Positions 9,440 to 63,795 of a stretch of 64,000 bases of DNA are shown piece by piece. Origin of the DNA: Ricordea florida (Eukaryota; Cnidaria; Anthozoa; Corallimorpharia; Ricordeidae). The stretch covers positions 13,491,742 to 13,555,741 of the forward strand of contig OX453286.1 in assembly GCA_949710005.1 (NCBI GenBank), written 5' to 3'. The notes below the pieces were generated by a model, which saw only the letters and a list, made by a program, of their open reading frames with translations, did not search any database and was not told the origin of the DNA. Made by a program: the position numbers and the translations under genes. Position 1 is the stretch's first letter, and each line of letters opens with the position of its first letter.

Positions 9440-9480
<41 letters not shown>

Positions 9481-10280: not shown

Positions 10281-10312
<32 letters not shown>

Positions 10313-13157: not shown

Positions 13158-13292
13158 AAATGGAAATATCAACAAATGGAAATATCAACTCCGCGATTAA
13201 ACATCATGCAGAAATCGGCCACGACATACATCCAAGTTACGCCGAAATTCTTGAAACAGGTGTAAGCAGCAAGAACAAAAGATTGTTTCTTG
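13076..13292. repeat. 82-bp inverted repeat with 53-bp spacer
   Basis: Arms 13,076-13,157 and 13,211-13,292 are exact or almost exact complements. The spacer (13,158-13,210) holds a direct repeat of AAATGGAAATATCAAC. The right arm ends at the base where retrotransposon coding sequence begins, so the repeat marks the junction of a chimeric insertion. Confidence 0.9.
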
Positions 13293-14731
13293 ACTGCATC
13301 GCACCTGTGATCTCTAGACTGGTAAATGGTTCGTTTCAAATGGCTGCCTTTCCCAAAGCATGGAAAATTGCTGAGGTGATACCGGTACCTAAAGAAGGCA
13401 ATTCAGAAGAACCGGCTAACAATAGACCGATATCATTGTTACCCATTCTATCGAAAGTAAGTGAGAGACTGGCACACAAGCAGTTTGTGGAATTTTTAAC
13501 AACGAATGATAAACTGTCGCTCTATCAAAGTGGTAATAGGAAAATGCATTCGACAGAAACTGCCCTCATTAATGTTTCAGACAATCTTTTAAAAGCAATT
13601 GACGAAAAATCAGCCTCGTTACTTGTACTGCTTGATATGTCAAAAGCTTTTGACAGTCTTAATCATAATCTATTGTTAGAAAAACTACGAAAACTTGGCC
13701 TTAAAGCTTCGGCGGTTTCCTGGTTTAGCAGTTATCTATCTAGTAGATATCAAAGGGTACGATACGAAGATTCAGTTTCAGAAATGTTACCTTTAACAAA
13801 TGGAGTACCTCAGGGATCAATCTTGGGTCCAGTGCTTTTTACAATTTATATTAATGATTTAATTAGTGCTATTACCTACAGTCAAGCTGCCGCGTATGTT
13901 GATGATAGTCAATTGTACTTTAAATTTTCTGTATCAGCTTCATCAAGTGCTATGGCAGCTGTAAACCAAGATCTTAGGAATATCAGCAAATGGTGCGCAA
14001 CAAATGCTCTACTCATAAACCCTGACAAGACAAAATTAGTGGTTGTTGGCTCAGCACAACTTATTAAGAAGCTACCTCCTATTTCATTGTCTTTGTTAGG
14101 CAAAACTATTTCACCAGTTCCGTTTGCCAAGGATCTAGGGGTATATATTGACCAATGTCTCACTTATGATGTACATATCTCTAAGACAGCTTCTAGTTGC
14201 ATGAACCAGTTGGTACATATCAGAAGAATTAAACATCTCTTAGACAAGAAAACACTATTATTACTTATAAATAGCTTCGTTTTCAGTAAATTGTTTTATT
14301 GTTCCTCAGTGTGGGGGAACACATCTAAACGTAATCTACACAAACTACAGTTGGTGCAGAACTTTGCAGCCAGAGTTGTATTAGGGTTAAGGAAGTTTGA
14401 CCATATATCTCAGGGTCGGAAATCTCTTAGATGGTTAGATGTTACAGAGAAAGTTTTATTTAATGATTTAGTTTTAGCATTCAAATGTGTAAATGGTCTA
14501 GCTCCAGATTATTTAGTTAAATATTTTGTTAAACGTTCAGCAGTTCACAATAGGAATACAAGGGGATGTAATAATTTTGTGGTTCCCCGATGTAGACTGT
14601 CAACAGGACAAAGGGCGTTTTCCTATCGGGGTCCAAGGGAATGGAATGGGCTAGCTGAGAACATTAAGAATATCAAAGAAATTAATAATTTTAAGAAGAC
14701 TCTTTTTAAGAATATGTTTTATAACAATTAA
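13159..14731 (+). CDS. Chimeric ORF: Penelope endonuclease tail fused to L2/CR1-like reverse transcriptase
   Basis: One frame is open from before 13,159 to the TAA at 14,729-14,731. The first 45 or so residues (INSAIKHHAEIGHDIHPS ... KNKRLFL) come from a Penelope-like endonuclease. From DCIAPVIS at 13,293 onward the frame is reverse transcriptase: PVPKEG and RPISLLPILSKV, then LVLLDMSKAFDSLNHNLLL (catalytic Asp near 13,634), NGVPQGSILGPVLFTIYIND, and YVDDSQLYF near 13,892-13,918 as the catalytic box, followed by thumb-type sequence to VWGN and RGPREWNGL. The box is YVDD rather than the usual YADD. In active relatives it copies element RNA at a nicked target. No intact endonuclease remains, so self-mobility is unlikely. 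The fused frame is probably fortuitous. Confidence 0.75.
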
Positions 14732-22232: not shown

Positions 22233-23800
22233 TCAAACAAAATAATCTTCCAGGCTTGGAGGATCTAGCTGAAAATACTGTGAGGTTTCATTTCCATATA
22301 AACATGTAAGAGCATTTCTTAGTAAGGCAGATACAACATACATTTTGCCAACGCTACTGAGCCCCACTTTCAGATTTTTCTTGAAGTCTATAAATTTAAA
22401 GTAGTTTTGGACATCTGCAAATAGCCATTCAACCGATGTTCGCACAGAGTTCATTGACTGGTTATAAAGCTGCTTCTGAGGGGTAAGGTAAGCATCTCTG
22501 AAGGGGCCCTGCAGATGAACCCTTAGGGGGTAGGCAGGGTCCCCATATATGCACATTGGTTGCCCTGTTGTTGAAAATGCATACTGTTCAAGATCTTGTA
22601 GTAGTCCAGAATCTCTGAGCATACTGGCATCATGCCTCTTTCCCTCTAGAATAAATTGGGAATATCTTATTAAAAACCTTCATATAGATACTTATTGTTT
22701 ACATGCCATTAAAGACAATCTATTTCAAGTGACCTATCTTTTAATAATACACAGGCTTTGGTTATGAATGTTTCTGGCATTATAAGGGACTGATCAATAT
22801 ACCATGTGAAAGCATAACCTTTACAACATTGATATAGGTACAGGTACATGAGAGAACATTCCATTTCCCTTGTTTAATTTTTTTATTATTTTAACTATTT
22901 TACTCTTCTTGTTGCATCAAAATTATTTAGTTCCGCCCATTTTTATTCAGTCCACAAAATGAGAGGCTGGGCTTAAGAGTCTATTTTAGAGTAAAATGGA
23001 ACAGGACCTGTTTAAATGGAGGAAAGCCAATAAGGTGAATGTTCGACTATAATATAAATTATATAGAGAGAGTCAGGTAAGCCCGCATGCTGGAATAACA
23101 ACAAAATGACAAAAGAAACATGTAATTTTCACTTACCTACTGGTCCATATAGGTTGCCAATCAGTCCATTAGGTAGGGCAAGTGACTGAAATTTTAAAGC
23201 GTGTACTCGCTTATGTCCATTATACATAATACGCTGGTGTTCATCTGGTCGAGCTATAGGTCGGACAGTTCCGTCCACAAATCCAAAACAGTTCTCCAAT
23301 GCAGCCCCCTTTCCGTGGATAGTTTCTGCGTATACTTCTAAAGCACGAGGGCTCAGCAGTGTGTGATTCCATTGTGTTATGAGATGATTGTGAGTATTGT
23401 AAATGTAATCGAGGACATGATTTGTAGCCATACTAAAAACGGGAACTGGACGTCCAAAACGGTAAATGAGGTCTCCATATCTACAGGGATACGCAAGTCG
23501 CTTCAAGAGCATACAGAGGCCTTCCATACCATCTACAACACTCCTCTGAGAAAGCTGAAATGACCGTGGAATCCTAAGAGCTTGCGCCAGTGTTGGAAGA
23601 TCTCTTTTCCTTACTCTAAATTCGGCTTTGCATTCGTCGTCGTTCATGTTACCCAAGTCAAAGCGGTCGTACGAATCATAAGCAAAATATGGATTTCGTG
23701 AAGAAAACAACTCGTACAGGATTATGAAATCCTCATCAGTAATAAGATCAGCATCGTAGTAGAGAAGAAGGGTCTGACGAAACTCTTTAAAACTTGCCAT
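22233..23800 (-). CDS. Harbinger DDE transposase (HARBI1-like)
   Basis: Two exons, 23,800-23,137 and 22,645-22,233 (donor GTAG|GTAAGT, acceptor TTCTAG|AGG), joining GPV to EGKRHDASM in frame for 358 residues, the normal size for the family. Exon 1 has an N-terminal helical part, PCRYGDLIYRFGRPV (helix-turn-helix-like), and GFVDGTVRPIARP, whose Asp is the first catalytic residue. Exon 2 has YGDPAYPL (second Asp) and SVRTSVEWLFADV (Glu). The enzyme cuts and inserts the element at 3-bp targets in the nucleus, with the Myb-like protein as partner. No broken frame is visible. The ATG at 23,800 (MASFKEFRQT) aligns with the related copy at 54,490. Confidence 0.93.
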
Positions 23801-24051
23801 AGCACAACAGATACAAAACTGTATCTGGAACTGAGAATGGAGGCGTCTTGTCAAAACAGCATCCGTGCTTAAAGAAATTAAATTTGGCGGGAGAGCGACG
23901 ACGTCAGACCCAGGCCTTCGTGGATCTGACGGCGGCGTCGTCCTCGAGGTCTCTCGTGCTTAAGCTCCCTATTGTGTCGGGTGTTACGGCTGACCAACAT
24001 ATTGTGCACTCAACTTGGCCACATTTGGCAGTAAAATTTCCCAGCGTGTAT

Positions 24052-27444: not shown

Positions 27445-30400
27445 TTTAGTCTCTTATTTTTGCAGGCACCCTTAGTTTACTTGTAAGCTTAAATGGTAGG
27501 ATGTAGAGAGAGAGCTAGGAGGCAACTTGCTACTTCTGTTTCTACACAGATGGTGACATTATATTACTCTACTAAGATCTCTATCACCTTGTTGGTTTTC
27601 ATGTCTTAAACTGCAAATACTACTATTTGCGCGTATTAGAAACTATTTTTCACTTTAGCAATAAAATGTTGCCGAACAAATCGTAAAGGAAATGCATTTC
27701 CGCAAAAAGAAATAACGTAGCTGCTATTTCTTGTGCGTGAAACTTGCTACCTCTGTTAACACACAAAGGCTGAAATTCAATGACTTTTCTAGAAAGTCTT
27801 TTACATTGTTGGTTTTGGATGGTTGAAACTCCGAATGACATTTCTTGTATTGGGCCTATTTCAGAAAGCATGTTTCTAGCTAGCTGAATATAAAATAAAA
27901 TGTTGCAGCACAAATCATGAAAGGGACGCATTTCCGTGTAGCGTATTAACGTAGCTGCTATTTGGTGTGTGTTGAACTTGTTACTACTCTTTTCACACAA
28001 TTGGTGACATTCTGTGACTTTTGTAGAAAGTCTTTCACATTGTTGCTTTATATTGTTGAAACTCTGAATGACACTATTAGCATTGGGCATATTTCAGAAA
28101 CCATGTTTCTAGCTTAATCGGGAGAAATAAAATGTTTCCAGGCAAATATTACGCATCTCCGTGCAACGCAATAACGTAGCTGCTATTTGTTGTGTGTTGA
28201 ACTTGCTTCTTCTCTTTCCACACAAATGGTGTCATTCTATGTCTTTTGTAGAAAGTCTTTTACATTGTAGGTTTTGGATGGTTGAAACTACGAATGACAT
28301 TATTTGCATTGGTCACATTATAAATTTCATGTTTTCAGCTTAAAATCGTTTAAATAATATGTTGCTTGGCAAATAAGAAAATGGACGTATTTCCGTGCAC
28401 GCAATGACGTAGCTGCTATTTGTTGTGTGTTTAACTTGTTGCTGCTTTTTTCACACAAACGGTGAACATTCCATGGCTTTTGCAGAAAACCTTTATATTG
28501 TTAGTCTTGAGTGGTGCAAACTCCGAATAACATTTCTTGTATTAGGCATATTTTAAAAAAGCATGTTTCTAGCTTGCTTAATATAAAATTAAATGTTGCA
28601 GGACAAATCGTGAAGGGAACGCATTTCCGTGAAGGGCAATAACGTAGCTCCTATTTGTTGTGATTTCAACTAATTTGTTGTGTCTTTAACTTGTTACTTA
28701 TTTTTTCACACAAAGGGTGACATTCTATGACTTTTGTAGAAAGTCTTTAACATCACTGCTTGTGAATGGTTGACTTAGCTGTTACTTCTTTTGCGTGCAG
28801 CCTGCTACTTCAGTCTCCACTCAAATTGTGACATTGTATGACTTTTTTTTCACAGAAATAAAATGTTCAATGAGAAATCGTAAAGGGGCTCATTTCCGTA
28901 CAGCGCAATAACGTAGCTGCTATTTGTTGTTCGTGCAACTTGCTACTTCTGTTTCCACACACAAGGCGACATCTTACCACTTTGCAAGAAAAGAAATTTT
29001 ATTAAATTGTTAGTTTTTGATGTCTTATGCTGCAAAGGACAGTATTGGCATTAAGTGGTTTTCAGAAAGTATTGTTTAGATAAGCATCACGGAAATAAAA
29101 TGTGTGCCTGAAAAATCGTATAGGGGAAGCATTTCCGCCCAGCGTAATAACGTAGCTGCTATTTGTTGTTCGTACAACTTGCTACTTCTGTTTCCACACA
29201 AAGGCTAACATTCTATGACTTTTGTAGGAAGTCTTTTACGTTGTTGGTTTTGGATAATTGAAACTCTGAATTACATTATTTTTCATTGGGCACTTTTTGG
29301 AAACGATGTTTCCAGCTTAATATTACAGAAATATAATGTTGTCCGGCTAATAATAGAACGGACGCATTTCCGTGCCGTATACTAGCTATTTGTTGTGTGT
29401 TTAACTTGTTACTGGTCTTTTCACACAAAGGCTGACATTCTATGACTTTTGTAGAAAGTCTTTTACGGTGTTGCTTTTGAATGTTGGTAATTCTTAATGA
29501 CATTGTTTACCTTGGATAGTTCTTAGAAACCATGTTTCTTGCTTAATATTAGAAAAATATAATGTTACCAAGCAAATAATAAAAGGGAGGCATTTCCGTT
29601 GCGAGCATTAACGTTGCTGCTATTTGTTGTACGTGCAATCCTGCTACTTCTGTTAGCACACAAATGCTGACATTCTATGACTTTTGTAAAAAGTCTCTTA
29701 CATTGTTGATTTTGAAAAGTTGATACTCAGAATGACATTACTTGCATTGGGCACTTTTCAAAATTCATGTTTTCAGCTTAATATCACAGAAATATTTATG
29801 TTGCTTGACAAGTCGTAAAGGTGACGTATTTCGGTAAAGCGCAATAACGTGGTTGCTGTTTGTTGTGTGTGCAACTTGTTAGTTTTGTTTCCACATAGCA
29901 GGGCGACCTTTCATCACTTTACAAGAAAGTTTATTAACTTTTTAGTTATTGATGTCTTATATTTTAATTTGACAGTATTGGCATTAAGTGCTTTTCAGAA
30001 ACCTTGTTTTCAGTTTAGAGTCACAGAAATAAAATTTTGCCGACAAAATCGTAAAAGTGAGGCATTTTCGCACAGCAAAACACGTAGCTGCTATTTGTTG
30101 TTGTACAACTTGCATCTTCTGTTTCCATTCAAAGTGTGAAATTGTATGACTTTTGTAATAAGTCTTTTACATTTTTGGTTTTTCATAGTTAAAATCGGAA
30201 TGTCACAATTTGCAATAATCTCTTGTCAGAATTCATGTTAATAAAATGTTACAGAACAAATCGCGAAGCGGACGCATTTCCGCGTAGCGCAATAACGTAG
30301 CTGCTATTTGTTGTGCGTCTAACTTGTTACTTCTCTTTCCATACAAAGGGTGACATTGTACCAGTTTACTAGAAACTCTATCACATTGTTAGTTTTGGAT

Positions 30401-36501: not shown

Positions 36502-38498
36502 ATGATAATAATAATAAAAATAATAATAGACTTGTATAGCGCTAGAACTATACAAAAATATTCAAAAGCGCTTTACATTAAGTTAAAATCAATAAATAAA
36601 TAGAAAGCACTAAACTTTAAAACTATTTCAACAACTATGCTAAACTTTAAAACTATTCCAACAAAGCAAAAGCTTTCTTAAAAAGAAATGTTTTCAGTTG
36701 CTTTTTAAAAGTGGCGAGGCTGCTACTTGTTCTTATAGTTAATGGCAGCGAGTTCCATAAAACAGGTGCAGCATGAGCAAAGGCCCGATCCCCAAGTTTA
36801 GAGCAGTTGACTTTTGGAACGACCAGAAGAGATTTTGCAGACGAACGAAGAGCGTAATTAACAGCTGGTTTCAGGGATAAAAGATCTTTTATGTAGGAAG
36901 GACTTTGGTTGTGTAGTGCCTTGTAAACAAGAAGAAGCAATTTAAACTGAACTCTAAACGATACTGGAAGCCAATGCAAGTCGATAAGAGCGGGTGTGAT
37001 ATGATCAAATTTCGCAATCCGAAAAATCACTCTAGCCGCGGCATTCTGAACTTTCTGTAAACGATCAAGCTGGTATTTAGGTAGATCAAATAGAAGAGCA
37101 TTGCAGTAATCAAGGTGCGAAGATACAAAGGCGTGGATCAGTGTCTTTGTGGATTGCGCGGTAAGGAATTTTCTGATCTGTCTTATGTTGTATAGTCCAC
37201 GAAAAGCCTTGCTACAAATCTTGCCAATGTGAACATTCATTCGCATATGAGCATCGAACCAGGCCCCAAGGTTCCGGACGCTTTCTAACGGTTAAATGAC
37301 AGTGTCGCTAATGATAATAGAATCAATAAATGTTTTTTCAAGTTGTTGACGGGTACCAATAATTAGAAATTCAGTTTTCGCGTCATTGATCATTAGACGA
37401 TTACCAATAAACCAAGAGCGGACATCAGCGATGCACTTTTTAATGACAGAGACAGCGTTAAATTCCGAATGGACAGAACAAGGTCGGAAGGAAAGGTAAA
37501 TCTGGGTGTCGTCAGCATAGCCATGGACGGAAGGGAGGTGCTGTGAAATAATGTTAAAGAGACGGGAGACGTAAAGAGTAAATAAAATAGGGGCCATGCA
37601 ACTGCCCTGGGGGACTCCACAGTTCAGATCGAAGTCGTCAGAAGTCTTATCACCGACAAGTATACGTTGTTTGCGACCAGACAGAAATGAGTCGAACCAA
37701 TTTAAAGCAGTTCCGACGACTCCAAAATCCTGTTGTAAGCTATTGAGAAGAATGCAATGTTCAATGGTATCAAAAGCAGCACTTAGGTCCAAAAGTACGA
37801 GAAGTGTCACTTGCTTATTATCCATACTCATTAAGATTTCGTTTTGAACCTTCAATAGAGCAGTCTCTGTCGAGTGATACTTACGGAAGCCGGACTGGAA
37901 TTTCGGAAGAGGGGCATTTTTCTCACAGTGGACGAGAAGTTGTTGAAGTGCGGCCTTTTCCACCACCTTGGAAATGAATGGAAGATTACTGACTGGGTTG
38001 AAATTTTTGTAGACCAAATCAAGTCCAGGTTTTTTCAATAGAGGGATGACATCAGCGGTTCTCCAATTTTCTGGAACGGAACCACTGGCAAGAGAGAGAT
38101 TAACCATCTCAGTGATAGATGGCGCTAATACATCAAGACAGGACTTCACTAGCCATGTAGGAAGAGGATCCAACCGACAATAGGCATTAGAAGATTCTCG
38201 AACAATCTTACACACTTCTCCTATGGATAACGAAGAAAAATTCTCCAGATTCTCCTTCGGAGTGACAGGAACAAGTCAAGGCACTTGAACTTGAAACTTG
38301 TCAAGATTTGCCTTTATGGTTTCAATTTTTTTGAGTAAAAAAGGTGCCAAATTCGTTTGCAAGTTTAGTGGAAGAGCCATCTCAAGTGGTTCCCTGGACA
38401 AAGAATTAACCACACGAAATAGCTGACGAGAGTCACCCGCACACTGATCAATTAGGTTAGAGTAATAACTCACACGTGCAGATTTAAGAGATGCAGAG
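36502..38498 (-). mobile_element. 5'-truncated L2/CR1-like retrotransposon
   Basis: 1,997-bp insertion flanked by TATATA at 36,496-36,501 and 38,499-38,504, replacing the normal satellite phrase TTATCTATATATCTAATTTG. On the minus strand it ends in a (TTA)n-type tail preceded by TATAGCGCTATACAAG-like sequence (shown as CTTGTATAGCGCTAG on plus). It lacks the 5' endonuclease region. A single reading frame runs almost through it. Confidence 0.85.
36653..38473 (-). pseudogene. L2/CR1-like reverse transcriptase with two nonsense codons
   Basis: One frame on the minus strand from 38,473 to the stop before 36,653, interrupted only by TGA at 38,278-38,276 and TAA at 37,294-37,292. It starts inside the linker before the reverse transcriptase (LIDQCAGDSRQLFRVVNSLS). 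It then has WRTADVIPLLKKPG, FQSGFRKYHSTETALLKVQN, LVLLDLSAAFDTIEHCILL (first catalytic Asp), CGVPQGSCMAPILFTLYVS and HGYADDTQIYLSF (catalytic YADD), and the C-terminal SHLDYCNALLFDLP and LHWLPVSFRVQFKLLLLVYK block typical of this group. With no frameshift and only two stops, it is a fairly young copy. It is a different subfamily from the one at 13,293. Confidence 0.9.
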
Positions 38499-53569: not shown

Positions 53570-53671
53570 GCAACTTTTAAAAATCAGTTTTTCCTAAACA
53601 GACTGAAACCGGACATAAATAGGTGATGTATAGAGAGACAGCCGGTAAGTATATATATTTTTTTCCCTTAC
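51270..53671. other. Expanded intron of the second Harbinger
   Basis: 2.4 kb where the intact copy has 0.5 kb. Mostly AT-rich sequence with nothing recognisable. It includes (TA)n at about 53,302-53,321 and (ATT)n at about 53,534-53,569. Probably contains at least one further insertion, whose limits I could not find. Confidence 0.5.
52878..53205 (-). pseudogene. Possible exon remnant within the intron
   Basis: Minus-strand reading NFVETDFTRLGNTSKQEDLL, then HIQERMARDRRR, followed by a good donor (CGA|GTAAGT) near 53,107. An overlapping frame continues TREAATQSRDSETTVDTITR and EIAAKTTTACSKKQRNQQ to 52,878. Charged, helical composition suggests past coding. No family recognised and the frames do not join. 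Confidence 0.25.
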
Positions 53672-54645
53672 CAACTGGGCCATAAAGCTTTCCAATTAGA
53701 CCATTAGGTAGTGCAACGCTTTGAAACTTTAAGGCATGCACTCTTTTGTGGCCATTGTAAACTGTGCGCTGGTTTGCTCTTGGACGTGTTATAGGCCGAA
53801 CAGTTCCATCAATGAATCCAAAGCAATTTGCTAAAGGAGAACCCTTGGATGCAATTGCATCGACGTACGTCTCAAGTTTGACTGGACTTAAAATGTTGTG
53901 GTTCCATCGTGTAACCCTGTGGGCATGATAATTGTATACGTGGTCCAACAGCTGGTTTGTCACAATGCTGAGAATTGGTGCTGGTTTAGCAAACCTTTGT
54001 ATCATATCTCCATATCTACATGGATAGGACAACCGCTTAAAAGAATACAGAGACCCTCGACAACGTCACAAATAGATCTAAACAAGAACAACAACAATTT
54101 CTTACTGTCAATATAAATAAGCTTTTATTTGACACAAATACAAATAAGTAAGTTATCATGTTCATCGCTTCAGTTCTTGAGAAAGAGCGTGGAATAAAAA
54201 CACTTCCAACTTTGCTTGTTTTTAAAATAGTTACCTTTGTTCGCATTCGATGATGGCAGGATTTGAAGGACATCCGAAAGAGCCACTTTATCTCTCTTTC
54301 TAAATCTAAATTCAGCCAAGCACTCAGATTCTTCGAGTTCTTCAAGGTCAAAATCAGGGTAACTGTGGTAGGGAAAATCTGGGTTTCTCGAAAAATATTG
54401 CTCATACAGTAACATGAATTCTTCATCATCAATCACACCATCATTTTGCATGAGGAGAAGAAGAGTCTGCGTATCTCTAAACGACGACATATTCGAACGA
54501 GATGTTTCAGGCGGCGTCATTTGGAACATTTGCTTAAGTTTTTATTTTTCCCGCCGAGAACGAAACCCGCTACCCAGTCTTTTACAGACATGACGTCATA
54601 ATTCCGTCGTCGTCGTCTCTTTCGTCGGCAATGCTTAAGCTCTCT

Positions 54646-54656
54646 AATAATTAGCA
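54646..54656. repeat. Satellite A scrap between Harbinger and the viral segment
   Basis: AATAATTAGCA resembles the satellite phrase and the 50,570 junction (ATAATTAGC). It may be the remains of the Harbinger target or of the site into which the viral segment joined. Confidence 0.35.
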
Positions 54657-55153
54657 GAAACGACGTCGCCTGGATTTGTTACGAAAACTGGGAAAAGAAC
54701 TGTCGGGCCGCACCTAGAATACCCTTGGCAAACGCACGCGACTACGCCTGCTTGGTCGAGTGTCCGTTGGATTCGTGTCCGTGCAACGTGTTGGCAATCA
54801 GACTCTGCAGGGCCATAGACTCGAGGAAAGCGGTGGTGTCTCTGTGCGGGTTGGACGCCTCGGGTGACGCGAAGCTGAAGAGCGTTTTCTTTTGTTCGAC
54901 CGAAAGCGGTCCGCCTTGCCCGAACGGTAGCAAACCGGTCAAATTGAACTATCTTGGCAGAAAAGCTCTCGCACTCGATTATCGGTATCGCACAGGAGCC
55001 CTGTGGTTAAGCGCATTGCCAGTCGCGCGTCCTTTGCACCGCGGCGAATGCGTGTGCCTGGAAGGTTGCGAAAAACGAAGACTACCGCGTTTGCGATGCA
55101 ACGTCGAGTCCCCGTACATGGACACTCTAACGGAGTGCTTGAGGAAGGATTAA
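54657..55153 (+). CDS. Unrecognised viral-segment ORF, N-terminus missing
   Basis: The frame is open from the left edge of the segment (AWICYENWEKNCRAAP ...) with no ATG before the edge, and ends at TAA 55,151-55,153. Cys-rich: ACLVECPLDSCPCN, FFCSTESGPPC, GECVCLEGCEK, which may bind metal. About 165 residues remain. No homology recognised. Coding is supported by length, composition and lack of stops in GC-rich DNA; the lost start fits truncation at integration. Confidence 0.5.
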
Positions 55154-55458
55154 ATCGACCGCGACATAGGCGACGCCATCGTTTTCGTACATCACGTAGC
55201 GGGAGTGCAATGTAAAAAGACCTCAAAACCGCTCTCTTACTGCAACAGTACCGCAACGGGCACCGGCATCGACAAAAAAAGTTAACGCGAAGTTTTTTTT
55301 GGCCAAGTCGCATACAATGTCATCTCACCTACAAGGGTAGCAAACGACAAAACACAAAACCGTTCTCGCGGAAAGATTTTTTTTGGAGTTTTCGTCGTTG
55401 ACGCTGCCCGTTTTAGTTTGTTTGTTTCTTCTTTTCTTTTTATTTTTGCGTCCCTTTC
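55154..55458. other. Spacer in the viral segment
   Basis: Ends with a T-rich stretch (55,410-55,446) containing TTTATT at 55,439-55,444, which is an AATAAA on minus and could serve the polymerase-like gene. No convincing ORF. Confidence 0.4.
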
Positions 55459-55605
55459 ATGGAGTGGCTGTTGTGCACGGTCACTCTTCCCGATGACTTT
55501 GAGGTCGATATGCCGCCGCCAGGGCCACCACCACCGTTAATGCCGGGTATACGTGACCACAAACGGGAGAAAGCGCGACTGAGAACCCGCGACGCAAACC
55601 TATGA
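55459..55605 (+). CDS. Small proline-rich ORF, viral segment
   Basis: ATG at 55,459 opens 48 codons (MEWLLCTVTLPDDFEVDMPP, then a Pro run, then a basic end KREKARLRTRDANL). It ends 52 bases before the stop of the opposing polymerase-like gene, so the two would be convergent. It is too short to be sure of; composition and start context make it worth keeping. Confidence 0.3.
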   Translation: MEWLLCTVTLPDDFEVDMPPPGPPPPLMPGIRDHKREKARLRTRDANL

Positions 55606-55657
55606 TTGTAGGCCGCGTTTCAAGAAATTCGGTTGACGCTAGCACCTTACAACGCTT

Positions 55658-56876
55658 TCAACCTTTCAACCCTTGTTTCTCCAGCGCTTTCGATTCTTCC
55701 GGCGAGTACCAAGTGTTCTTGCCGGCGTTCAGCAGACAAGCGAGCGCCGGATTTATGCTGACAAAGTCGAAGATCGCAAACGGTCCGTCGGCCACGTAAT
55801 GAGGCAGCCAAGGAAGGACGTGACCTCCGCGGTAACCGGCGCTTTTCTCCACGCGCACCCTGCACACGGTGTTCAAACGACCGTTAAAGGACGCCATGGC
55901 CGCAGCGTACCGCCATTTGGCCGACAAAGGAAGGACATTTTTTTTCGTTGTTGCTCCTTCTTGCCAGCAGCGCAGCAGAAATCGCGCCCTGTCTTCTTCG
56001 CTCTCCGAGAGGCGAGACCAACGTACCCCAGCCTCGAAAACGGGGACGCCGAGGCCGCACTTGAATTTTGTCTTGCCGACCCGGGAGGGCCATCGATCCC
56101 ACACGGAAAATACTGCGTCAAAGTCGCGATTCAAGAACTCCTTGAGTTTTGGCATTGCCGTGCCGGCATCGCGAACGACGATAGCCTTGGATTCGTTTCT
56201 TCCTGCTAACCGAACGAACTCCGCGGCGTCTGCGAATTCGAAAGTCCGGGCGCTTTCGACTTGAGCTACCAACAGCCTTCCCTCCGCGTCGACGTCCAGT
56301 CGCAGGACGGGCACGTTCGGTGTAGGCGCAAACCAGGTCCGTCCTTTCGACCCACCATCGTGTCGCAGAAAGCCATCGCACGGATCCCTTGCGACATCTG
56401 GCAACGAAGCGCGCGCTCGGAATGCCCAGATTGAACAAGAGGTCGATGCACGAGTCTGTAAAGAATCGCGCCTTTCGTTGGACGAGATCTCGAAAAAGCC
56501 GGGAGTAGGCATCCTCGGTGCTCAAACGGATCTGCACCAGGGTTTCGGGGTCGCCTATCCCTTCGTCTACGCGTTTGTCGCAGCCAAAGTCTTTGTCCCC
56601 CACGCGACGTTGACTGTCGCGCAAGAGTCGAGCGGGCTCCTCGTAGTCGTACGCTTTAAGGTAGAGTCGATAAGGCACGGGAGAGAACTGCCACGCGACG
56701 AGATTTTCTTCCTGGTCGAAGCCGGCGACGATCAGGCTGCAGGACGTCCCGTTTTTCTTAGCGGTGTAAGCGGAGTACGAGAACACGGTCAGCTCGTAAT
56801 CGTCTTCTTTCGTGCCGCATCCGCCTTCGAAACACACGCGCCCCCCATTCAAGTCGTCTCGTTGCAACCCGTTCAT
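55658..56876 (-). pseudogene. Family B DNA polymerase-like gene, frameshifted and C-terminally truncated
   Basis: Start taken as ATG at 56,876 (MNGLQRDDLNGG). Two overlapping frames cover it, with the switch at about 56,320-56,345. Order of marks on minus: FFTDSCIDLLFNLGIPSARF (fits the helix-and-strand block before the exonuclease domain), VPVLRLDVDAEG (position of exonuclease motif I, Asp-x-Asp instead of Asp-x-Glu), FSVWDRWPSR (weak motif II), then GYRGGHVLP and FAIFDFVSINPAL. The last matches the spacing of polymerase motif A, D-F-x-S-x-x-P, but with Asn where Tyr is usual. About 185 residues separate exonuclease I from motif A, short for the family, and the frame ends at TGA soon after, so motifs B and C are absent. 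Copying viral DNA is the family role; this copy cannot do so. The assignment rests on motif order only. Confidence 0.5.
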
Positions 56877-57316
56877 GCTCGTCTCGCTTAACACTCGCTT
56901 AAAACATCACACACGCACAAACGCACTAGCGCACACACTAAAAAAAAACAGCAAATGCAAACGAAAACTAGAAATAAACCACGACAACAAAGGTTGGCAC
57001 TTTTTTGTTTATTGGTTAATATCAACAAGCGAGAGGCGCGTGCGATGCTGTCTGCAAACAGTCGCAAACGCCAACTCCGTTGAGTTTCTCCGGCACACTG
57101 CAAGTCGCTTTACGCGCGGGATTGTTGGACATTGCGGGACAGTTGTTACTTAATTCCGCTGTTCTTATTTTGTTTTGCGTTTTATTTTGTTATTTTAGAA
57201 AATTGGGTTTGTTTTTCGATTTTTTTTTGCCGTCGCTTTTGTTCCGTCGCTCGTTGTCGTCTCTTTTGCCATTGGGCGGTTTTGTTGAATGTTATTTTAG
57301 AGGGATCCGCGCACCT
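56877..57316. promoter_or_regulatory. Intergenic region between divergent viral-segment genes
   Basis: Separates the minus gene starting at 56,876 from the plus gene starting at 57,317, so promoters for both should lie here. It holds an A-run (56,939-56,948), AATAAA near 56,971 on plus and TTTATT near 57,017. A hydrophobic translation over 57,140-57,260 exists but is low-complexity F/L and probably not coding. No clear TATA element beyond AT-rich patches. Confidence 0.35.
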
Positions 57317-58029
57317 ATGAAAAACGGAACCGGAGAGAATGAGACGGAACAAGCTCCCTCTCCTTATTATGGAAGCAACGCCAAAATCCAATGCGTAGAT
57401 TTCGTTCCTCCCCCGCCGCTGAGCGTGCCCGCGGAGTTTGAAGAAGAGGTGAAATTCTTGATTCTAGACGTGACGGGCACCGACACCGGCTTCACGCATT
57501 GGATATCGCCGAGCACCACGGACCGCACAATCCTGGAACTTTACACGTTCTTGTACCTTTTGAACATGATATTCGCCCACGCCGATCTTCCGTGCTGCAT
57601 TTTCGCAACGACAAATCAGGCGGGCTGGAATCGACCAGCAGCGAAAAGTCGGGCATATGGAAAAAGTTTCACGACGACGGCATCGCGTCCGTGTACCGGT
57701 CTTACATCAACGACGACGTCAACGCGTTCCAGCAAGACATCCATGAGGTGATTTTCGACTGCTGTTTCGTGGTTCTCGCCAACCGAATGTTCTTGTGCCC
57801 GTCGCTCAAGGATCGCATGGTGACGCACGAAGTGAACAAAGTGGTCACCGAAAGCGAGAAGCTGACGGTGGCGGAGGTTTTCGAGCGCATGGAACGCTAC
57901 GAGACCATGAAGCTGCTAGTCGTCGCTCTGGTTCGCATTTTCGAGTTCGTCGCTTGCTCGTTCGAAGACTACGCCCACCTAAGCGATATGGAAAAGTTAG
58001 CGTTTCACGTCATGGACGAGGAGTTTTGA
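57317..58029 (+). pseudogene. Unrecognised viral-segment gene with one frameshift
   Basis: ATG at 57,317 (MKNGTGENETEQAPSPYYGS) opens a frame containing VPAEFEEEVKFLILDVTG and TILELYTFLYLLNMIFAHAD. At about 57,595-57,610, near the TTTT of GCATTTTCGC, coding character passes to the next frame, which continues KFHDDGIASVYRSYINDDVN, NAFQQDIHEVIFDCCFVVLA and FEDYAHLSDMEKLAFHVMDE to TGA at 58,027-58,029. Expected product about 237 residues, mixed alpha/beta, soluble. I do not recognise it; a structural or regulatory role cannot be told from sequence. The next gene starts 3 bases after its stop. Confidence 0.5.
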
Positions 58030-58032
58030 GCC

Positions 58033-58639
58033 ATGCAACTCGATGCCAACTTTCTGGGAAGGGGCCGACTGTTGGACAACATACGGATCATGACTCTCAT
58101 GTACGCCCTTTGGCGCGCCACGCTCGAAGTGCTGGGCTGCGTCGACACCGTCGAGACAACCATGCCCGAGGAGGAGTGCAACCAGAGGATGGCTCGAGAG
58201 GCGATACGCTCGTCGGGGCAAAAACCCCTATATTCGGTGGTTCGCAAAGTGCAGGAGGTCTTCAATCCAGCGCCGGCGGACTACCTGACGGTGACGACGT
58301 TGATTTATTTCGACGAAAACCCCTACGGACCAATCTACCGCGTCATCGTCGGATCCATAGTCGACCCGTCCAAAGTCGAGACGTCCAGCGAACCGCCGTT
58401 CCATTTTTGTCGTTTCGGACATGACGAGCACCCGACTGTGCGAGGCCTTCAGCGAAGCCCGCTTGCAGTACGACCTCAAAGACATCAGGTCCACGCTAGA
58501 TTCGATGTCCCTTTCCATGTCTCGGCAAGGGATTCCCGTGCTCGCTATTTCGAGTCAAAGTCGACGCGAAGGAGGCGGGTACTCCTCATTTTTTCAACTT
58601 AGGTTAGATGCCTCGGAGACGCAACGCGTTTGGAGATGA
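58033..58639 (+). pseudogene. Unrecognised viral-segment gene with frameshift in a T-run
   Basis: ATG at 58,033 (MQLDANFLGRGRLLDNIRIM) follows the previous stop by 3 bases. The frame has MYALWRATLEVLGCVDTVET, FNPAPADYLTVTTLIYFDEN and YGPIYRVIVGSIVDPSK. At the T5 run 58,404-58,408 the coding signal moves to the adjacent frame, which reads TSTRLCEAFSEARLQYDLKD and RSTLDSMSLSMSRQGIPVLA and ends at TGA 58,637-58,639, overlapping the next ATG. The whole would be about 202 residues. The ATG at 58,421 could alternatively start a separate short gene. No family recognised. Confidence 0.5.
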
Positions 58640-59361
58640 CAGAGCTCGTCGACAGGCTCACGGAGGACATTCGAACCAAGATACGCGACGCCTTGGACCG
58701 CAAGATAGCAGACCCGTTTCGCGGAGCGCTGCGAGACGAGTTGAAAGATTCCCAGGTGACAATCGACACGAGGCGTTACGGCAGCAAAGCCGACCGCCTT
58801 TTCCTGTTCCTTTTTCATCTACCGCCCAACAGGTGGAGCCAACGACACGGCGGGATAGTGGAAGGTGACCACTGGGACGTAAAACCCTCTGCGAGAATAA
58901 GCGTCGATTTTAACTACGCGCGCCTCGAAGTGTTGCGCTCTTGGCTTTGCGAGTGCGTCGAGGACGCGGCCAACGTGCGGCGACGAGAAGGATACGTCGT
59001 CGTGTCAAAGGCGAGCGTTTGTCTCGGGCTCCCCGATGCCCTGACGAATTGTAGCGTGTTTGAAATGTTTTTCGACGCGGAACCCAGAGATGGCGGCGAC
59101 GAGGACGACGACCCTTGCGACGACGATTCAGGACTCTTGCCTCACTACCGCATAGGGGACAATGTGTACGTGCACCAGGCCGTGTTGTTCCTGCGCCTCG
59201 GGGTCAACGATGCTTGGGCTCGACACTTGCGCGATCGCTGCTCCGAAACGGACTGCCCCACAGAGTACCGCGTGTTGGACGCCAACGGTCACCCGGAGGC
59301 GTGCGCCCGACTCGCCGCCATGAAAAGGACGATCGTGGAGGAATGTTACACGACCAAATAG
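58636..59361 (+). CDS. Unrecognised viral-segment gene, 5' part before an amber codon
   Basis: ATG at 58,636 overlaps the preceding TGA (ATGA), a compact arrangement. 241 residues: an N-terminal helical region (MTELVDRLTEDIRTKIRDAL), FLFLFHLPPNRWSQRHGG, RISVDFNYARLEVLRSWLCE, an acidic stretch (GGDEDDDPCDDDSG, about residues 150-165) and VYVHQAVLFLRLGVNDAWAR. It ends at TAG 59,359-59,361. The same frame remains open beyond the TAG for another 255 codons, so this and the next entry may be one gene. No homology recognised. Confidence 0.5.
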   Translation: MTELVDRLTEDIRTKIRDALDRKIADPFRGALRDELKDSQVTIDTRRYGSKADRLFLFLFHLPPNRWSQRHGGIVEGDHWDVKPSARISVDFNYARLEVLRSWLCECVEDAANVRRREGYVVVSKASVCLGLPDALTNCSVFEMFFDAEPRDGGDEDDDPCDDDSGLLPHYRIGDNVYVHQAVLFLRLGVNDAWARHLRDRCSETDCPTEYRVLDANGHPEACARLAAMKRTIVEECYTTK

Positions 59362-60126
59362 AAGCGTCCGCTCTGTCGATTCGAGCAAGACGGCAAAGGA
59401 AACCGCGTCGCCTTGTTGCACGTGGCCTTGGCGTCCAAGATACAGAAGGAGGTTCGATGCAAACACGGCTCTTCCACGGGCACGGCAGAAGACTTCGTTC
59501 GTCGGTGCTTGCGGGAAAACTTTACGGAGAGAGAAACGGTCGTGTTCTTCGACAAGAGTCGCCGCCAAGGACCCGTCCTCGACGTGGTCAAGATTCGCGA
59601 CGTCCGACTCGCGAACGGCGGTCGCCTGCCGAAGTTTTGCTTGCGCGCCGCGTCTAGAGCAACGCGCTTGCCTTTTACGCTGCAAATGATGGACGAGGGA
59701 AGGGTCGGAGTGTTGGCTACGAGAAACAAACCGTTGACTGCGTTTCCGCCGGATCACGAAGCCCGGTACTTCGCGCGCAAGTATTTTGCCAGTTCGGGCT
59801 GGATAAGGGAAGCGCAAGATCGAGCGAGCGCAACGCACGGCCCGGACTACGACACTTGCGAAGCCGCCGCGCGCGAAGAGGTAGAAAGTTTGACGGACAT
59901 GTGGCTCGAAAGATTCAGAGGAAGATACCGACCGTTCTCGCTGGGAAGGCCCGTTTCCACTGTTGCAGAGTTCGTTCGCCAACCGAGTCGATCGGATCGC
60001 TCCAACGAGGGAAAAAAGAAAACAGACCCGCGAACCGCGGTCGACCCAGAAGACAACGACAGCGATTGCGACCGTGACTACGAGATCGATGATCCCGGCA
60101 TTAGTCTCTCCTCTCTCGAGCGGTGA
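59362..60126 (+). CDS. Unrecognised viral-segment gene, part after the amber codon
   Basis: In phase with the preceding ORF, with no in-frame ATG near its beginning, which supports continuation across the TAG (mutation, sequencing error or readthrough). Contains NRVALLHVALASKIQKEVRC, VVFFDKSRRQGPVLDVVKIR, RLPKFCLRAASRATRLPFTL and ARYFARKYFASSGWIREAQD. The C-terminal tail is highly polar and acidic (EDNDSDCDRDYEIDD) after a basic KKK patch, plausibly a nuclear localisation and regulatory tail. TGA at 60,124-60,126, AATAAA at 60,180-60,185. No family recognised. Confidence 0.5.
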   Translation, partial: KRPLCRFEQDGKGNRVALLHVALASKIQKEVRCKHGSSTGTAEDFVRRCLRENFTERETVVFFDKSRRQGPVLDVVKIRDVRLANGGRLPKFCLRAASRATRLPFTLQMMDEGRVGVLATRNKPLTAFPPDHEARYFARKYFASSGWIREAQDRASATHGPDYDTCEAAAREEVESLTDMWLERFRGRYRPFSLGRPVSTVAEFVRQPSRSDRSNEGKKKTDPRTAVDPEDNDSDCDRDYEIDDPGISLSSLER

Positions 60127-60179
60127 ACGTAAAACGAAAACGAAAAAAAAGAAACCCTCCCCTCCAAAAAAAAAGCAAA

Positions 60180-60185
60180 AATAAA
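60180..60185 (+). terminator. Poly(A) signal, plus strand
   Basis: AATAAA 54 bases after the stop of the gene ending at 60,126. It faces the minus-strand signal at 60,227-60,232. Confidence 0.6.
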
Positions 60186-60226
60186 GAAAAACACAACGCG
60201 CTATCTGTAGCAAAAGAGCAGGCTTT

Positions 60227-60232
60227 TTTATT
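60227..60232 (-). terminator. Poly(A) signal, minus strand
   Basis: TTTATT on plus, hence AATAAA on minus, 17 bases beyond the stop of the minus gene at 60,249. Tight tail-to-tail ends of this kind are typical of compact nuclear DNA viruses. Confidence 0.6.
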
Positions 60233-60248
60233 GTTACTCTTGTCACTC

Positions 60249-60556
60249 TCACCATTCCTTGGACCATTGTCCCTCGAACGATTTATTCATCGCGGATAGC
60301 TCGGGCGCAACGAGTGTAGCGATCTCCGAATAATGATTCCTTTTCTTGCCTCTCTTTTTACTCCTAGGCCCTTGCCGCATTCCGCTTAGCCGAGAAGTCT
60401 CTGGAATCTGTAAGCCGTGGCAATCGCACGCGCGAATTCCACCTTCGTCCCCGCTTTCTTCCATTGAGGTCATTTGATTTATTAAGAGCTGCAGTTGCGG
60501 TGCCACAATATCCGCAAAGCTTTGCTCGTCTTGGGCGTTGTTTGGTTCGTCGTTTA
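60249..60556 (-). CDS. Unrecognised viral-segment ORF, N-terminus missing
   Basis: The minus frame is open from the right edge of the segment (about 60,556) to the stop at 60,249 and has no ATG at the edge, so the start is lost. It reads NDEPNNAQDEQSFADIV, PQLQLLINQMTSMEESGDEG, a CDCH motif, a basic patch RSKKRGKKRNHY that could be a nuclear localisation signal, and a C-terminus FEGQWSKEW. About 102 residues remain. Function unknown. Confidence 0.45.
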
Positions 60557-63500
60557 AAGTAATGCCTTTTCAAATATCGTTGATTTTTATAGAAGCAGCA
60601 AAAACTGTGGTTTCACTATAAGGTACCCTCTCGTCTTTAAATGGGCATTTCTCGGGTTCCAATCAGCCGAACTGATTTAAATTTATAGCAAAATTTAGTC
60701 AACACTATAAATTTCAGAGCGCTTGGCCAATTGGGTTTGGAGTAAGGGGCTTTCAAATATTGTTGATTTTTATAGAAGCAGCAAAAAGGTGGTGTTACTT
60801 TAAGACACATTCTCGTCTTCAAACTGGCATTTCTCGGGTTTGTTTTTGCTGAATTGATTAAACTTTGTACCAAAATTTAGTCCAAGGCATTTAGTTTGTG
60901 TGGTATATTTTTCAGAGCGATTAGCCTATTAGGTTTGAAGTAATGACTTTTAAAATATCGTTGATTTCCAAAGATGCAGCAAAAACGGTGGTTTTACTGA
61001 AAGGCACATTCTCGTTTTTGAACTGGCATTTCTCGGGTTTGATTCAGCCAAATTGATTGAAATTTAAACCAAAATTTAGTCCATGACGTCTCGTTTGTGT
61101 GGTATAAATTTCAGAGCGATTACCTTATTGGGTTTGCAGTAATGGCCTTTAAATATCGTTGATTTTCAACGAAGCAATAAAACCGGTCGTATTACTGTAA
61201 GGCATATTCTCGTCTTTAAACTGGTCTTTCTCGGGTTTCATTCAGCTGAATTCATTGAAGTGTGTACCAAAATTTAGTCCAAGGCGTCTAGTTTGTGTTG
61301 TATATTTTTTAGAGCTATTACCTGATTGGGCTTGGAGTAATGGCCTTTAAAATATCGTTGATTTCAAAAGAAGCAATAACAACGGTGGTGCTACTGTAAG
61401 GCTCATTCTCGTGTTTCATTCAGCCGAATTGATTTAAATTTAAACAAAAATTTAGTCCAAGGTGTATAGTTAGTGTGGTATAAATTTCGGAGCGATTGCT
61501 GATTGGGTTTGGGGTAATAGCTTTTCAGAATTCGTTGATTTTAAAAAAAGCAGCAAAAACGGTGGTGTTTCTGTAAGGCTCCTTCCCGTCTTTAAACGGG
61601 CATTTATAGTTTTTACAGTGATTGGCTTATTGGGTTTGAAGGAATGGCCTTTCAAATATTGTTGATTTTTAAAGAATCAAAAACGGTGGTGTTACTGTAA
61701 AACACCCTCTTGTCTTTAAACGCGCATTTCTTATGTTCCCATTAGACGAATTGATTAAAATGTAAGCCAAACTTTAGTCCAAGGAACTACTTTGCGTGGT
61801 ATAAATATCAGAGCGTATGGCTGATTGGGTTTGGAGTATTTGCTTTTCGAAACTCGTTGATTTTCAAAGAAGCAGCAAAAACGGAAAAGTTACTTTAAGG
61901 CACCCTCTCCTTCTTTAAACGGCTTTTTCTAGGGTTACAATCTGCCAAATTGATCGCAATTTAGATTAAATTTAGTCCATGCCGTTTACTTTGTGTGGTA
62001 TAAATTTGAGAGCGATTAGCTTATTGGGTTTTGAGTAATGGCCTTTTAAATATCGTTGATTTTCAAAAATGCAGCAAAAACGGAGTTACTTTAAGGCACA
62101 TTCTCGTTTTTATAGTGGCATTTCTCGGGTTCTAGTCAGCCGAATTGATTGAAAATCAAACCAAACTTTAGTCCATGGCGGGTATTTTTTTTCGTGTAAC
62201 TTTCAGAGCGATTGGCTGATGTGTTTAAACTAATGAACTTTAAAAAGTCGTTGATTTTTAAAGAAGCAGAAAAAACGGTTGTGTTACTGTTAGGCACCCT
62301 CTCATCTAAGAACGGCAATTTCTCGGGTTCCAATCAACCAAACTGATCACAATTTAAATCAAAATTTAGCCCAGGCCGTCTAATTTGTGTCGTATAAATT
62401 TCAGATCGATGTTATTATCCTTTTTGGAGTAATGGCCTTTCAAACATTGTAGATTTTAAAAGGAGGAGCAAAAACGGCGATGTTACTGTAAGGAAACCCC
62501 CCTTGTCTTCAAACGGCCATTTCTTTGACTCCAACTAGCCAAATTAATTGAAATTTAAATAGAAAATAGTCCACTCCGTCTAGTTTTGGTGGTCCAAATT
62601 ATAGAACGATCGTATGATTGGGTTTGGAGTAATGGCCTTTCAAATATCGGTGATTTTCAAAGAAGCAGCAACAACGGTGGTGTTAATGTCAGGCACCCTC
62701 TCTTTTTTCAACGGCCATTTCTTCGGTTCCAACGAGATAAGTTGATTGAAATTTGGATATGAAATACCCTTTCGGTCTTGCTTGTTTGGTTTAAATTTCA
62801 GAGCAATTAACTGGTTGGGTTTGGAGTAATGCCATTTCAAAAATCGTTGAGTTTCAAAGAAGCAGCAAAAACGGTGGTGTTGCTGTCAGGCACCCTCTCG
62901 TATTTAAGCGGCCATTTCTCGGGTTCCAATCAGCCTAATTGACTAAACTGTAAATCAAAATTTAGCCCAGGACGTCTAGTTTCTGTGGTGTAAATTTAAG
63001 AACGATCGTATAATTGGGTTTGGAGTAATGGCCTTTCAAACATCGTTGATTTTAAAAAAAGCAGAAAAAACCGTGGTATTATTGTAGGGCACCCTCTCGC
63101 ATTAAAACTCAATTTCTCGGGGTCCAATCAGCCGAATTGAGTAAACTTTCAATCAAAATGTATAGCAGGATGTCTCGTTTGTGTGGTATAATTTTCAGAA
63201 CGATCAAATGATTATGTTTGGAGTAATGGCTTTTCAAAAATCGTTGATTGTCAAGGAAGCAGCAAAAACGGTGCTGTTACTGTAAGGAACCCTCTCCATT
63301 TCTTCGGTTCCAACGAGATAAATTGATTGCAATTTCAATAGGGAATAGTCCAGGGAATAGTCCAAATTTAAGAGCGATTCGCTGATTGGGTTTGAAGTAA
63401 TGCCCGTTAAAAAATCGTTCATTTTCAAAGAAGCATCAAAAACGGTTGTGCTACTGTAAGGCATCCTCTCGTCTTCAACCGGCCATTTCTCTGGTTCCAA

Positions 63501-63795
63501 GAAGCCGAATTGATTGCAATTTAAATAGGGAATAGTTCACCCCGTCTAGATTGGGTGGACTAAATTTCAGAGCGATTTGCTGATTGGGTTCTGAGTGGTG
63601 GCCGTTCAAAAATCTTTGATTTTCAAAGAAGCGGCAAAAACGGTGGTGTTACTCTAAGGAAGCCTCTCGTCTTTAAACGGCCATTTCTTCGGTTTCAACA
63701 AGATAAATTAATTCCAATTTAATAGAGAATAGTCCAGGCCGTCTAGTTTGTGTGGTCCAAATTTCAGAGCGATTCGCTGATTAGGTTTGCAGTAC
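60557..63795 (+). repeat. Satellite C array, forward
   Basis: About 17 units of roughly 195-200 bp, some shortened (about 125 bp near 61,534-61,661). Anchors: CGTTGATTTTCAAAGAAGCA, AACGGTGGTGTTACTGTAAG, TTCTCGGGTTCCAATCAGCC, AAATTTAGTCCA and TTTCAGAGCGATTGGCTGAT, then TGGGTTTGGAGTAATGGCC. Starts exactly where the viral minus ORF breaks off. Short ORFs here are translated repeats. Not related to satellites A or B by eye. Confidence 0.9.

What the first reader, a model, noticed from the sequence alone, without database searches (positions are those of the whole stretch)
54657..60556. GC-rich gene-dense island: likely endogenous fragment of an undescribed large DNA virus
Seen directly: eight densely packed ORFs on both strands, 3-base and ATGA gene junctions, tail-to-tail poly(A) signals, and no resemblance to the transposon genes around it, all inside AT-rich satellite. 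Both outermost ORFs are cut by the segment edges. One gene has family B polymerase marks. The other proteins are unfamiliar to me, so the virus may be from a poorly known lineage of marine invertebrates. That last step is inference.
Basis: partly seen in the sequence, partly recalled or inferred. Interest (0 to 1): 0.88.

Follow-up and report, generated by a model that had tools for sequence, protein, structure and literature searches.

The report
Decayed fragment of integrated large virus
A 5.9 kb GC-rich block in an animal chromosome (probably a coral) is the broken remnant of a large DNA virus, perhaps herpes-like, whose roughly 80 kb integrated copies recur near the middle of several chromosomes; it could give a genomic handle on the unidentified herpes-like viruses reported from corals.

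Summary
The block is real: window 54646-60541, GC 0.541 against 0.357 outside, far more long ORFs than base shuffles. It is a fragment of a colinear element of about 75-81 kb, of which parts were found at 10 loci on 9 contigs. Relative to the copy on contig 10 it lacks about 2.6 kb and 1.7 kb; frameshifts and in-frame stops make four or five broken genes look like eight. Longer copies carry family B DNA polymerase, PIF1 helicase, ribonucleotide reductase small chain, protein kinase and TRAF-like proteins, and a probable terminase ATPase, sub-threshold in Pfam and PHROGs. Six further copies begin within 6 bases of the left end seen in contig 10. Nine measured loci lie at 0.42-0.54 of contig length. 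Fluorescent-protein exons point to an anthozoan host. Five IMG/VR scans for close relatives found none. New variant of a known kind (endogenous large DNA viruses).

The parts
54646..60541 (.). whole viral segment, a twice-deleted fragment of a ~75-81 kb element
   Evidence: blastn to C10, C9, C6 copies; GC and ORF statistics
54646..55150 (+). 3' part of a Cys-rich (secreted-looking) ORF, 5' end cut off; 541-aa frame in the C10 copy
   Evidence: no Pfam or PHROGs hit; 'secreted-looking' is by eye
55660..55667 (.). deletion junction: about 2.59 kb present in C10 (distal part of the polymerase gene and beyond) is absent
55661..56512 (-). family B DNA polymerase, piece with the palm motif (motif II region); frame broken towards its N-terminal part
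   Evidence: 88% identical over 163 aa to P0001; P0001 = PF00136, E 1.2e-7
56121..56894 (-). N-terminal piece of the same polymerase gene, in another frame
   Evidence: 85% identical over 194 aa to P0002
57318..57605 (+). 5' part of a probable ATPase/helicase gene (ATG at 57318)
   Evidence: aligned to the C10 copy across L010/L011
57605..57605 (.). deletion junction: about 1.73 kb present in C10, including the Walker A part of the ATPase gene, is absent; the frame changes here
57605..58420 (+). 3' part of the ATPase/helicase gene, interrupted by an in-frame stop at 58027-58029
   Evidence: open at that place in L011:2140-3045; SF3-helicase assignment is by recalled motifs only
58630..60123 (+). 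gene of unknown function in two open pieces (58630-59358, 59362-60123), split by an in-frame stop at 59359-59361
   Evidence: L011:3049-3987 is open across that place; no homologue for the second piece
60180..60232 (.). tail-to-tail poly(A) signals AATAAA (60180) and TTTATT (60227)
60252..60541 (-). truncated ORF of unknown function converging on the previous gene; its frame crosses the segment edge
   Evidence: no Pfam hit

Best explanation
The block is a decayed, twice-deleted 5.9 kb fragment of a large double-stranded DNA virus that entered the germ line of its host and now exists as a family of integrated copies, the best covered about 80 kb long. Shown: the gene set, colinear multi-copy structure, a shared left end with differing flanks, decay, and mid-contig location. 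Inferred: the virus replicated with its own family B polymerase and helicases, used ribonucleotide reductase and a kinase for DNA synthesis and regulation, carried captured host-like TRAF/MATH proteins that may have interfered with signalling, and packaged DNA with a herpes/tailed-phage type terminase. Also inferred: genomes inserted by their left end, perhaps by an encoded recombinase or at a short CCTAA homology; copies persisted or accumulated in low-recombination, satellite-rich regions; the window copy then lost its ends and two internal stretches and picked up stops and frameshifts. No gene in the window fragment is intact, so it probably makes no viral protein today. Viral origin about 0.95; herpes-like (Duplodnaviria) lineage about 0.6; anthozoan, probably stony-coral host about 0.85.
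For: Polymerase; best solved relatives are herpesvirus polymerases at E 0.003, ahead of an archaeal one at 0.023 and polymerase alpha at 0.15; PHROGs DNA polymerase 6.9e-5. PIF1 helicase E 1.3e-23, RNR small chain 3.1e-101, kinase 1.6e-10 (the ORF was picked by motif), TRAF-like 7.3e-32. Terminase: the only Pfam family up to E 10 for L017:8797-9717 is PF02500 (E 0.065, 13.5 bits, cut-off 25), and its only named PHROGs family is terminase large subunit (E 0.27); the piece aligns over its full length at 5 of 5 loci found (93-97% besides the query itself), 4 of 5 without a stop. Colinearity. Left end: six other copies match only from query positions 100-106 (junction at 101), while the C10 flank is a host repeat that makes the other 33 of 40 rows. 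Insertions at corresponding element positions in C10 and C6 are unrelated sequences apart from simple repeat at the edge, as expected of separately ageing copies. Location: 9 of 9 measured loci at 0.423-0.539 of contig length.
Against: No capsid protein, portal, protease or terminase nuclease part was identified by profile; the capsid candidate (1,004 aa) has no Pfam hit up to E 10 and no named PHROGs hit. The terminase matches are below threshold, and an unnamed PHROGs family scores better (0.031). PF02499 found nothing, though the 14 control genomes gave nothing either. The helicase resembles cellular PIF1 far more than the herpes helicase profile (E 0.054), and the RNR is closest to animal enzymes; both could be captured genes. 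Five IMG/VR scans found no relative. The right end was not tested (search unanswered). The excess of third-position changes between copies is modest, so the copies' history is not resolved.
Confidence: 0.72

Rival explanations
1. A giant mobile element rather than a true virus: a virus-transposon fusion (Teratorn-like) that spreads by transposition inside the genome.
For: Parts at 10 loci, a shared left end with different flanks, and an ORF (L011:8275-9900 running into L017:1-684) that by eye resembles a tyrosine recombinase.
Against: No recombinase or transposase family for that ORF in Pfam (both parts) or PHROGs (first part only). No inverted repeat between the left end and the C10 right side, but that side is cut by a LINE-like insertion, so this test is weak.
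Confidence: 0.15
2. A large DNA virus of another group: Mirusviricota, Nucleocytoviricota, or a nimavirus-like group.
For: Large ATPase/helicase genes and RNR occur widely in such viruses (recalled); some mirusviruses have the terminase ATPase and nuclease parts encoded apart (PMC12768974, passages read).
Against: No Nucleocytoviricota family among the Pfam families listed for 126 distinct ORF pieces (only 25 of 64 and 25 of 62 families were shown in the first two); a terminase, if real, argues against Nucleocytoviricota and nimaviruses (recalled); mirusviruses are reported to infect predominantly unicellular eukaryotes (PMC12768974).
Confidence: 0.2
3. Ordinary host gene island or assembly contaminant.
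For: RNR small chain and TRAF-like proteins have close animal relatives.
Against: Colinear copies with stops, embedded in host repeats, on nine contigs; most ORF pieces scanned singly have no Pfam family.
Confidence: 0.02
4. One integration followed by spread through ectopic exchange between similar satellite-rich mid-chromosome regions, not repeated viral insertion.
For: The nine measured loci are mid-contig; satellite sequence of the window also matches the C9 flank.
Against: C10 and C9 left flanks do not match; C10 and C6 left flanks differ directly at the terminus; seven copies share the left end.
Confidence: 0.25

Closest known systems
Lancelet integrated malacoherpesviruses (amphioxus-associated herpesvirus, PMC2994540; BelcheriHV-1, PMC12373286; passages read)
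   Same: Large DNA virus integrated in an aquatic animal genome, mostly intronless clustered genes, family B polymerase; BelcheriHV-1 also has GC above the host and repeat-rich flanks.
   Different: Those are about 150 kb; [quoted passage not shown] Here about 80 kb, parts at 10 loci, decayed, only weak profile similarity. The mollusc and amphioxus terminase is reported intronless; here the ATPase frame ends before a nuclease part.
Teratorn, piggyBac-herpesvirus fusion of medaka (PMC5601938, PMC10175614; abstract starts in search listings only)
   Same: Endogenous herpesvirus-derived element in an animal genome.
   Different: Teratorn is about 180 kb and of the piggyBac superfamily; no such transposase was among the families listed here (two lists truncated).
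Mirusviricota (PMC12768974; passages read)
   Same: Herpes/phage-related viruses with a terminase; ATPase and nuclease parts encoded apart in some.
   Different: Reported predominantly from unicellular eukaryotes, some genomes over 500 kb; here an animal chromosome and about 80 kb. Relationship not tested by tree.
Coral 'herpes-like' virus particles (PMC4761846; passages read)
   Same: Herpes-like large DNA virus signal in coral hosts.
   Different: That evidence is microscopy and metagenomic similarity; here an integrated, decayed element. No link between the two is shown.

Membership tests
Endogenous large dsDNA virus (general) | Colinear set of viral replication and nucleotide-metabolism genes inside host chromosomes, with decay | tested here: met
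Herpesvirales | Family B DNA polymerase of herpes type | tested here: inconclusive
   PF00136 met; herpesvirus polymerases are the best solved relatives but only at E 0.003; no tree
Herpesvirales | Large terminase (DNA_pack_N / DNA_pack_C) | tested here: inconclusive
   PF02500 E 0.065, below cut-off; PF02499 nothing, controls nothing either
Herpesvirales | HK97-fold major capsid protein, triplexes, protease, portal | tested here: inconclusive
   candidate of 1,004 aa without Pfam hit; weak PHROGs head-protease hit E 0.018 for another ORF; no usable fold (searches were of other pieces)
Malacoherpesviridae | Sequence similarity to OsHV-1/HaHV-1 proteins | not testable with these tools
   no named animal-virus protein set is searchable here except solved structures
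Malacoherpesviridae | Uninterrupted (intronless) terminase gene (PMC2994540) | tested here: inconclusive
   ATPase frame ends in an AT-rich stretch followed by another ORF; nuclease part not located
Nucleocytoviricota | Double-jelly-roll capsid and packaging ATPase families | tested here: inconclusive
   none among listed Pfam families of 126 distinct ORF pieces; 25 of 64 and 25 of 62 families shown in two of three scans
Polinton/adintovirus | 15-25 kb, protein-primed PolB (PF03175), retroviral-type integrase (size and set recalled) | tested here: not met
   element ~80 kb; PF00136 far better than PF03175 (1.2e-7 against 0.038)
Teratorn | piggyBac transposase within the element | tested here: inconclusive
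   not among listed families; two lists truncated

The most novel reading that the evidence does not exclude
A cnidarian lineage of herpes-like viruses with a compact genome of about 75-80 kb, a terminase gene split between its ATPase and nuclease parts, and a dedicated way of integrating by one exact (CCTAA-starting) end, which has repeatedly endogenised and become a recurrent component of mid-chromosome, possibly centromeric, regions of its coral host.
Probability: 0.3. Interest if true: 0.92.

Novelty: new variant of a known kind. Interest (0 to 1): 0.78.

Why it matters
Herpes-like particles and sequence hits have been reported from corals, but neither microscopy nor metagenomics alone had fully resolved their identity (PMC4761846), and herpesvirus hits in invertebrate transcriptomes may be inflated by genes shared with hosts, RNR among them (PMC11097642). 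A chromosomal, multi-copy, colinear virus with a polymerase and a probable terminase gives defined genes to test for. It would also bear on how old herpes-type viruses are in animals, and on how large DNA viruses integrate with a fixed end and persist in satellite-rich regions.

Tried and rejected
Contamination or a host gene island: rejected (ten loci, decay, host repeats at the flanks). Polinton/adintovirus: rejected on size and polymerase family. Intact gene-dense island: rejected. Intron in the terminase gene: considered after (AT-rich stretch, a possible splice donor by eye), but no second part was found, so left open. Recombinase: motif impression only, no profile support. Structure prediction: two single-sequence AlphaFold2 models of window pieces had mean pLDDT 33 and 34 and were not searched or used. 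Sequence searches against solved structures: the terminase, portal candidate and one capsid-candidate piece gave nothing meaningful; L011:946-2136 gave AAA-type hits from E 0.001 upwards. Five IMG/VR scans found no relative. The search for homologous proteins: 1 of 3 queries had hits. Phages collection with the polymerase piece: none. PF02499 in the own genome: none. A shared inserted element between C10 and C6, which would have argued for copying after integration: not found. A first fluorescent-protein query was read on the wrong strand and gave nothing; it was repeated with a correctly oriented exon of another locus. Two papers looked for were not held.
Full report
What is there. The window lies on contig 15 (27.1 Mb) of a 538 Mb eukaryotic assembly in 48 contigs. 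Around 54646-60541 GC rises to 0.541, against 0.357 in the rest of the window, and long open frames are far denser than in 200 base shuffles. Satellite arrays with periods of about 100 to 416 bp lie on both sides. Pfam and PHROGs give no credible family for the window's own pieces. One of three protein searches found relatives: the polymerase piece matches P0001 (88% over 163 aa) and P0002, two ENA proteins from contigs of the same length (21.7 kb), presumably one contig. P0001 carries PF00136, DNA_pol_B, at E 1.2e-7.

Anatomy of the fragment. Compared with the copy on contig 10, the window copy lacks about 2.59 kb between 55660 and 55667 and about 1.73 kb at 57605. The polymerase gene is split by a frameshift and truncated by the first deletion. 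The next gene has lost its Walker A part through the second deletion (L011:946-2136 of the C10 copy contains it). The C10 frames end at other stops. So about four or five broken genes are present, with real tail-to-tail poly(A) signals at 60180 and 60227.

The element behind it. Copies on contigs 10, 9 and 6 are colinear at about 92-98% identity in the larger blocks. The window is 92.6-94.9% identical to C10 by substitutions in seven coding blocks, and 86-91% over longer blocks with gaps and non-coding sequence counted. The C6 copy runs from 16002248 to 15921546 by alignment, and to about 15921000 by GC in 500-base bins: about 81 kb. The C10 copy runs from 13466183 to a LINE-like insertion at 13546782 (a reverse transcriptase ORF lies beyond), with two AT-rich insertions inside. 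Insertions in C10 and C6 at two corresponding places are unrelated apart from simple repeats at their edges. Loci with parts of the element, hits within about 100 kb on a contig counted as one: C1, C6, C7 (two, their left ends in opposite orientation), C8 (left end only), C9, C10, C12, C15 (the window), C16: ten loci on nine contigs. Counts are lower bounds because the search scores only the best candidates. A codon-usage map of the C10 copy selects 67 segments, 52.4 kb coding; it was trained on chosen ORFs of the same element and counts broken pieces separately.

Gene content of the longer copies. Pfam was run on three sets of ORF pieces (51, 50 and 37; 126 distinct). In the first two sets only 25 of 64 and 25 of 62 families were displayed, so single-member hits of the second set are hidden. 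Found: PIF1 helicase (E 1.3e-23; herpes helicase profile only 0.054; best solved relatives cellular PIF1), ribonucleotide reductase small chain (3.1e-101; best solved relatives mammalian M2 chains), protein kinase (1.6e-10; assigned to L017:5921-6634 by motif), TRAF-like RING/zf-TRAF/MATH proteins (7.3e-32). The polymerase's best solved relatives are herpesvirus polymerases, at E 0.003 only, and a PHROGs DNA polymerase at 6.9e-5.

Is it herpes-like? The strongest hint is L017:8797-9717 of the C10 copy. By eye it has the Walker A signature of herpes-type terminases (motif recalled), which is why I scanned it. With Pfam up to E 10 its only family is PF02500 DNA_pack_N (E 0.065; 13.5 bits against a cut-off of 25; profile positions 173-268 of 278; the longer frame gave E 0.12). 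In PHROGs its only named family is terminase large subunit (E 0.27), behind an unnamed one at 0.031. Neither passes a threshold, but two libraries agree on function, and the piece is kept over its full length at the 5 loci found, 4 of 5 without stops. The nuclease half was not found: PF02499 gave nothing in the genome, and nothing in the 14 control genomes either. After the ATPase part the frame runs into an AT-rich stretch and a different ORF begins, so a split gene is possible but not shown. A capsid candidate (a long open frame of 1,004 aa scanned as it stands) has no Pfam hit, no named PHROGs hit and no IMG/VR relative. I therefore place the herpes-like assignment at about 0.6.

Ends and location. 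A query of 100 bases of C10 flank plus the first 207 bases of the element matched C10 in full and six other places over the element part only, from query positions 100-106; the other 33 of 40 scored rows (of 1640 candidates) match the flank part only, so that flank is a host repeat. Several of those repeat matches run up to 6 bases past the junction, which suggests a short shared CCTAA at the crossover; resemblance to telomeric repeats is a recalled impression, not a test. C10 and C6 left flanks differ right at the junction. C9 starts 214 bases further in. No inverted repeat was seen between the left end and the C10 right side, but that side is cut by an insertion, and the true right end is untested. 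The left end carries a tandem array of about 267 bp (9.5 copies in C6; about three in C10), with a diverged inverted copy about 8.5 kb inside (about 78%). The nine loci with known contig length lie at 0.423-0.539 of it; the length of contig 8 was not obtained. If sites were independent and uniform, the chance of all nine in that band, chosen after seeing the data, would be about 5e-9; for 'within 0.1 of the centre' about 5e-7. The loci may not be independent. That these regions are centromeric is an inference.

History. Substitutions between copies fall on codon positions 1/2/3 as 64/66/96 (window against C10, summed over the seven blocks), 130/124/177 (C10 against C6) and 96/96/157 (C10 against C9), at about 6.2%, 2.2% and 4.2% divergence. 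The third-position excess differs from equality (P 0.014, 0.003 and 2e-5) but is small; it fits mostly neutral decay after integration plus some divergence under constraint before it, or a mutation bias at GC-rich third positions. I give no date.

Host. The genome holds 61 matches to the GFP family, 57 of them on contig 11. A correctly oriented exon matched Azami-Green and Dronpa best among solved structures (best 60 of 308 shown); that these come from stony corals is recalled.

Literature seen. Passages read: lancelet proviruses (PMC2994540, PMC12373286), viral fragments in amphioxus (PMC10145014), mirusviruses (PMC12768974), coral herpes-like particles (PMC4761846) and a survey of invertebrate viromes (PMC11097642). 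Others appear only in listings. In nine searches of the library no title or abstract start shown reports an integrated herpes-like virus in a cnidarian; this library lacks most subscription papers, and one directly relevant survey of invertebrate herpesviruses was not held.

Verdict. It is a decayed fragment of an integrated, multi-copy large DNA virus, probably herpes-like, in what is probably a coral.

Noticed in passing
window 53577-54529 (-) and 23129-23959 (-): Two related transposase-like ORF remnants that look like PIF/Harbinger (recalled); one lies just left of the viral segment.
   Followed up: no
window 13046-14731 (+) and 36653-38275 (-): Long reverse-transcriptase-type ORFs of non-LTR elements (identity by eye).
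   Followed up: no
window 9462-12792, 27711-30182, 60712-63794: Tandem arrays with periods 416, about 234 and about 198; sequence of the window's satellite stretches also matches the fetched C9 stretches many times.
   Followed up: partly
L040:5115-7703 (contig 6, left end of that copy): 267-bp tandem array of 9.5 units at the element's left end, about three units in C10, with a diverged inverted copy about 8.5 kb inside the element.
   Followed up: partly
L011:8275-9900 (+) running into L017:1-684 (+): ORF with an acidic stretch in its first half and a C-terminal part that by eye resembles tyrosine recombinases; no profile hit.
   Followed up: partly
L015:2441-3946, L016:6766-7458, L038:8920-9933: Three TRAF/MATH-type proteins in one viral element, repeated use of a host signalling fold.
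   Followed up: partly
own genome, contig 11, about 9-20 Mb: Large cluster of GFP-family exons (57 of 61 matches), used here only to identify the host group.
   Followed up: partly
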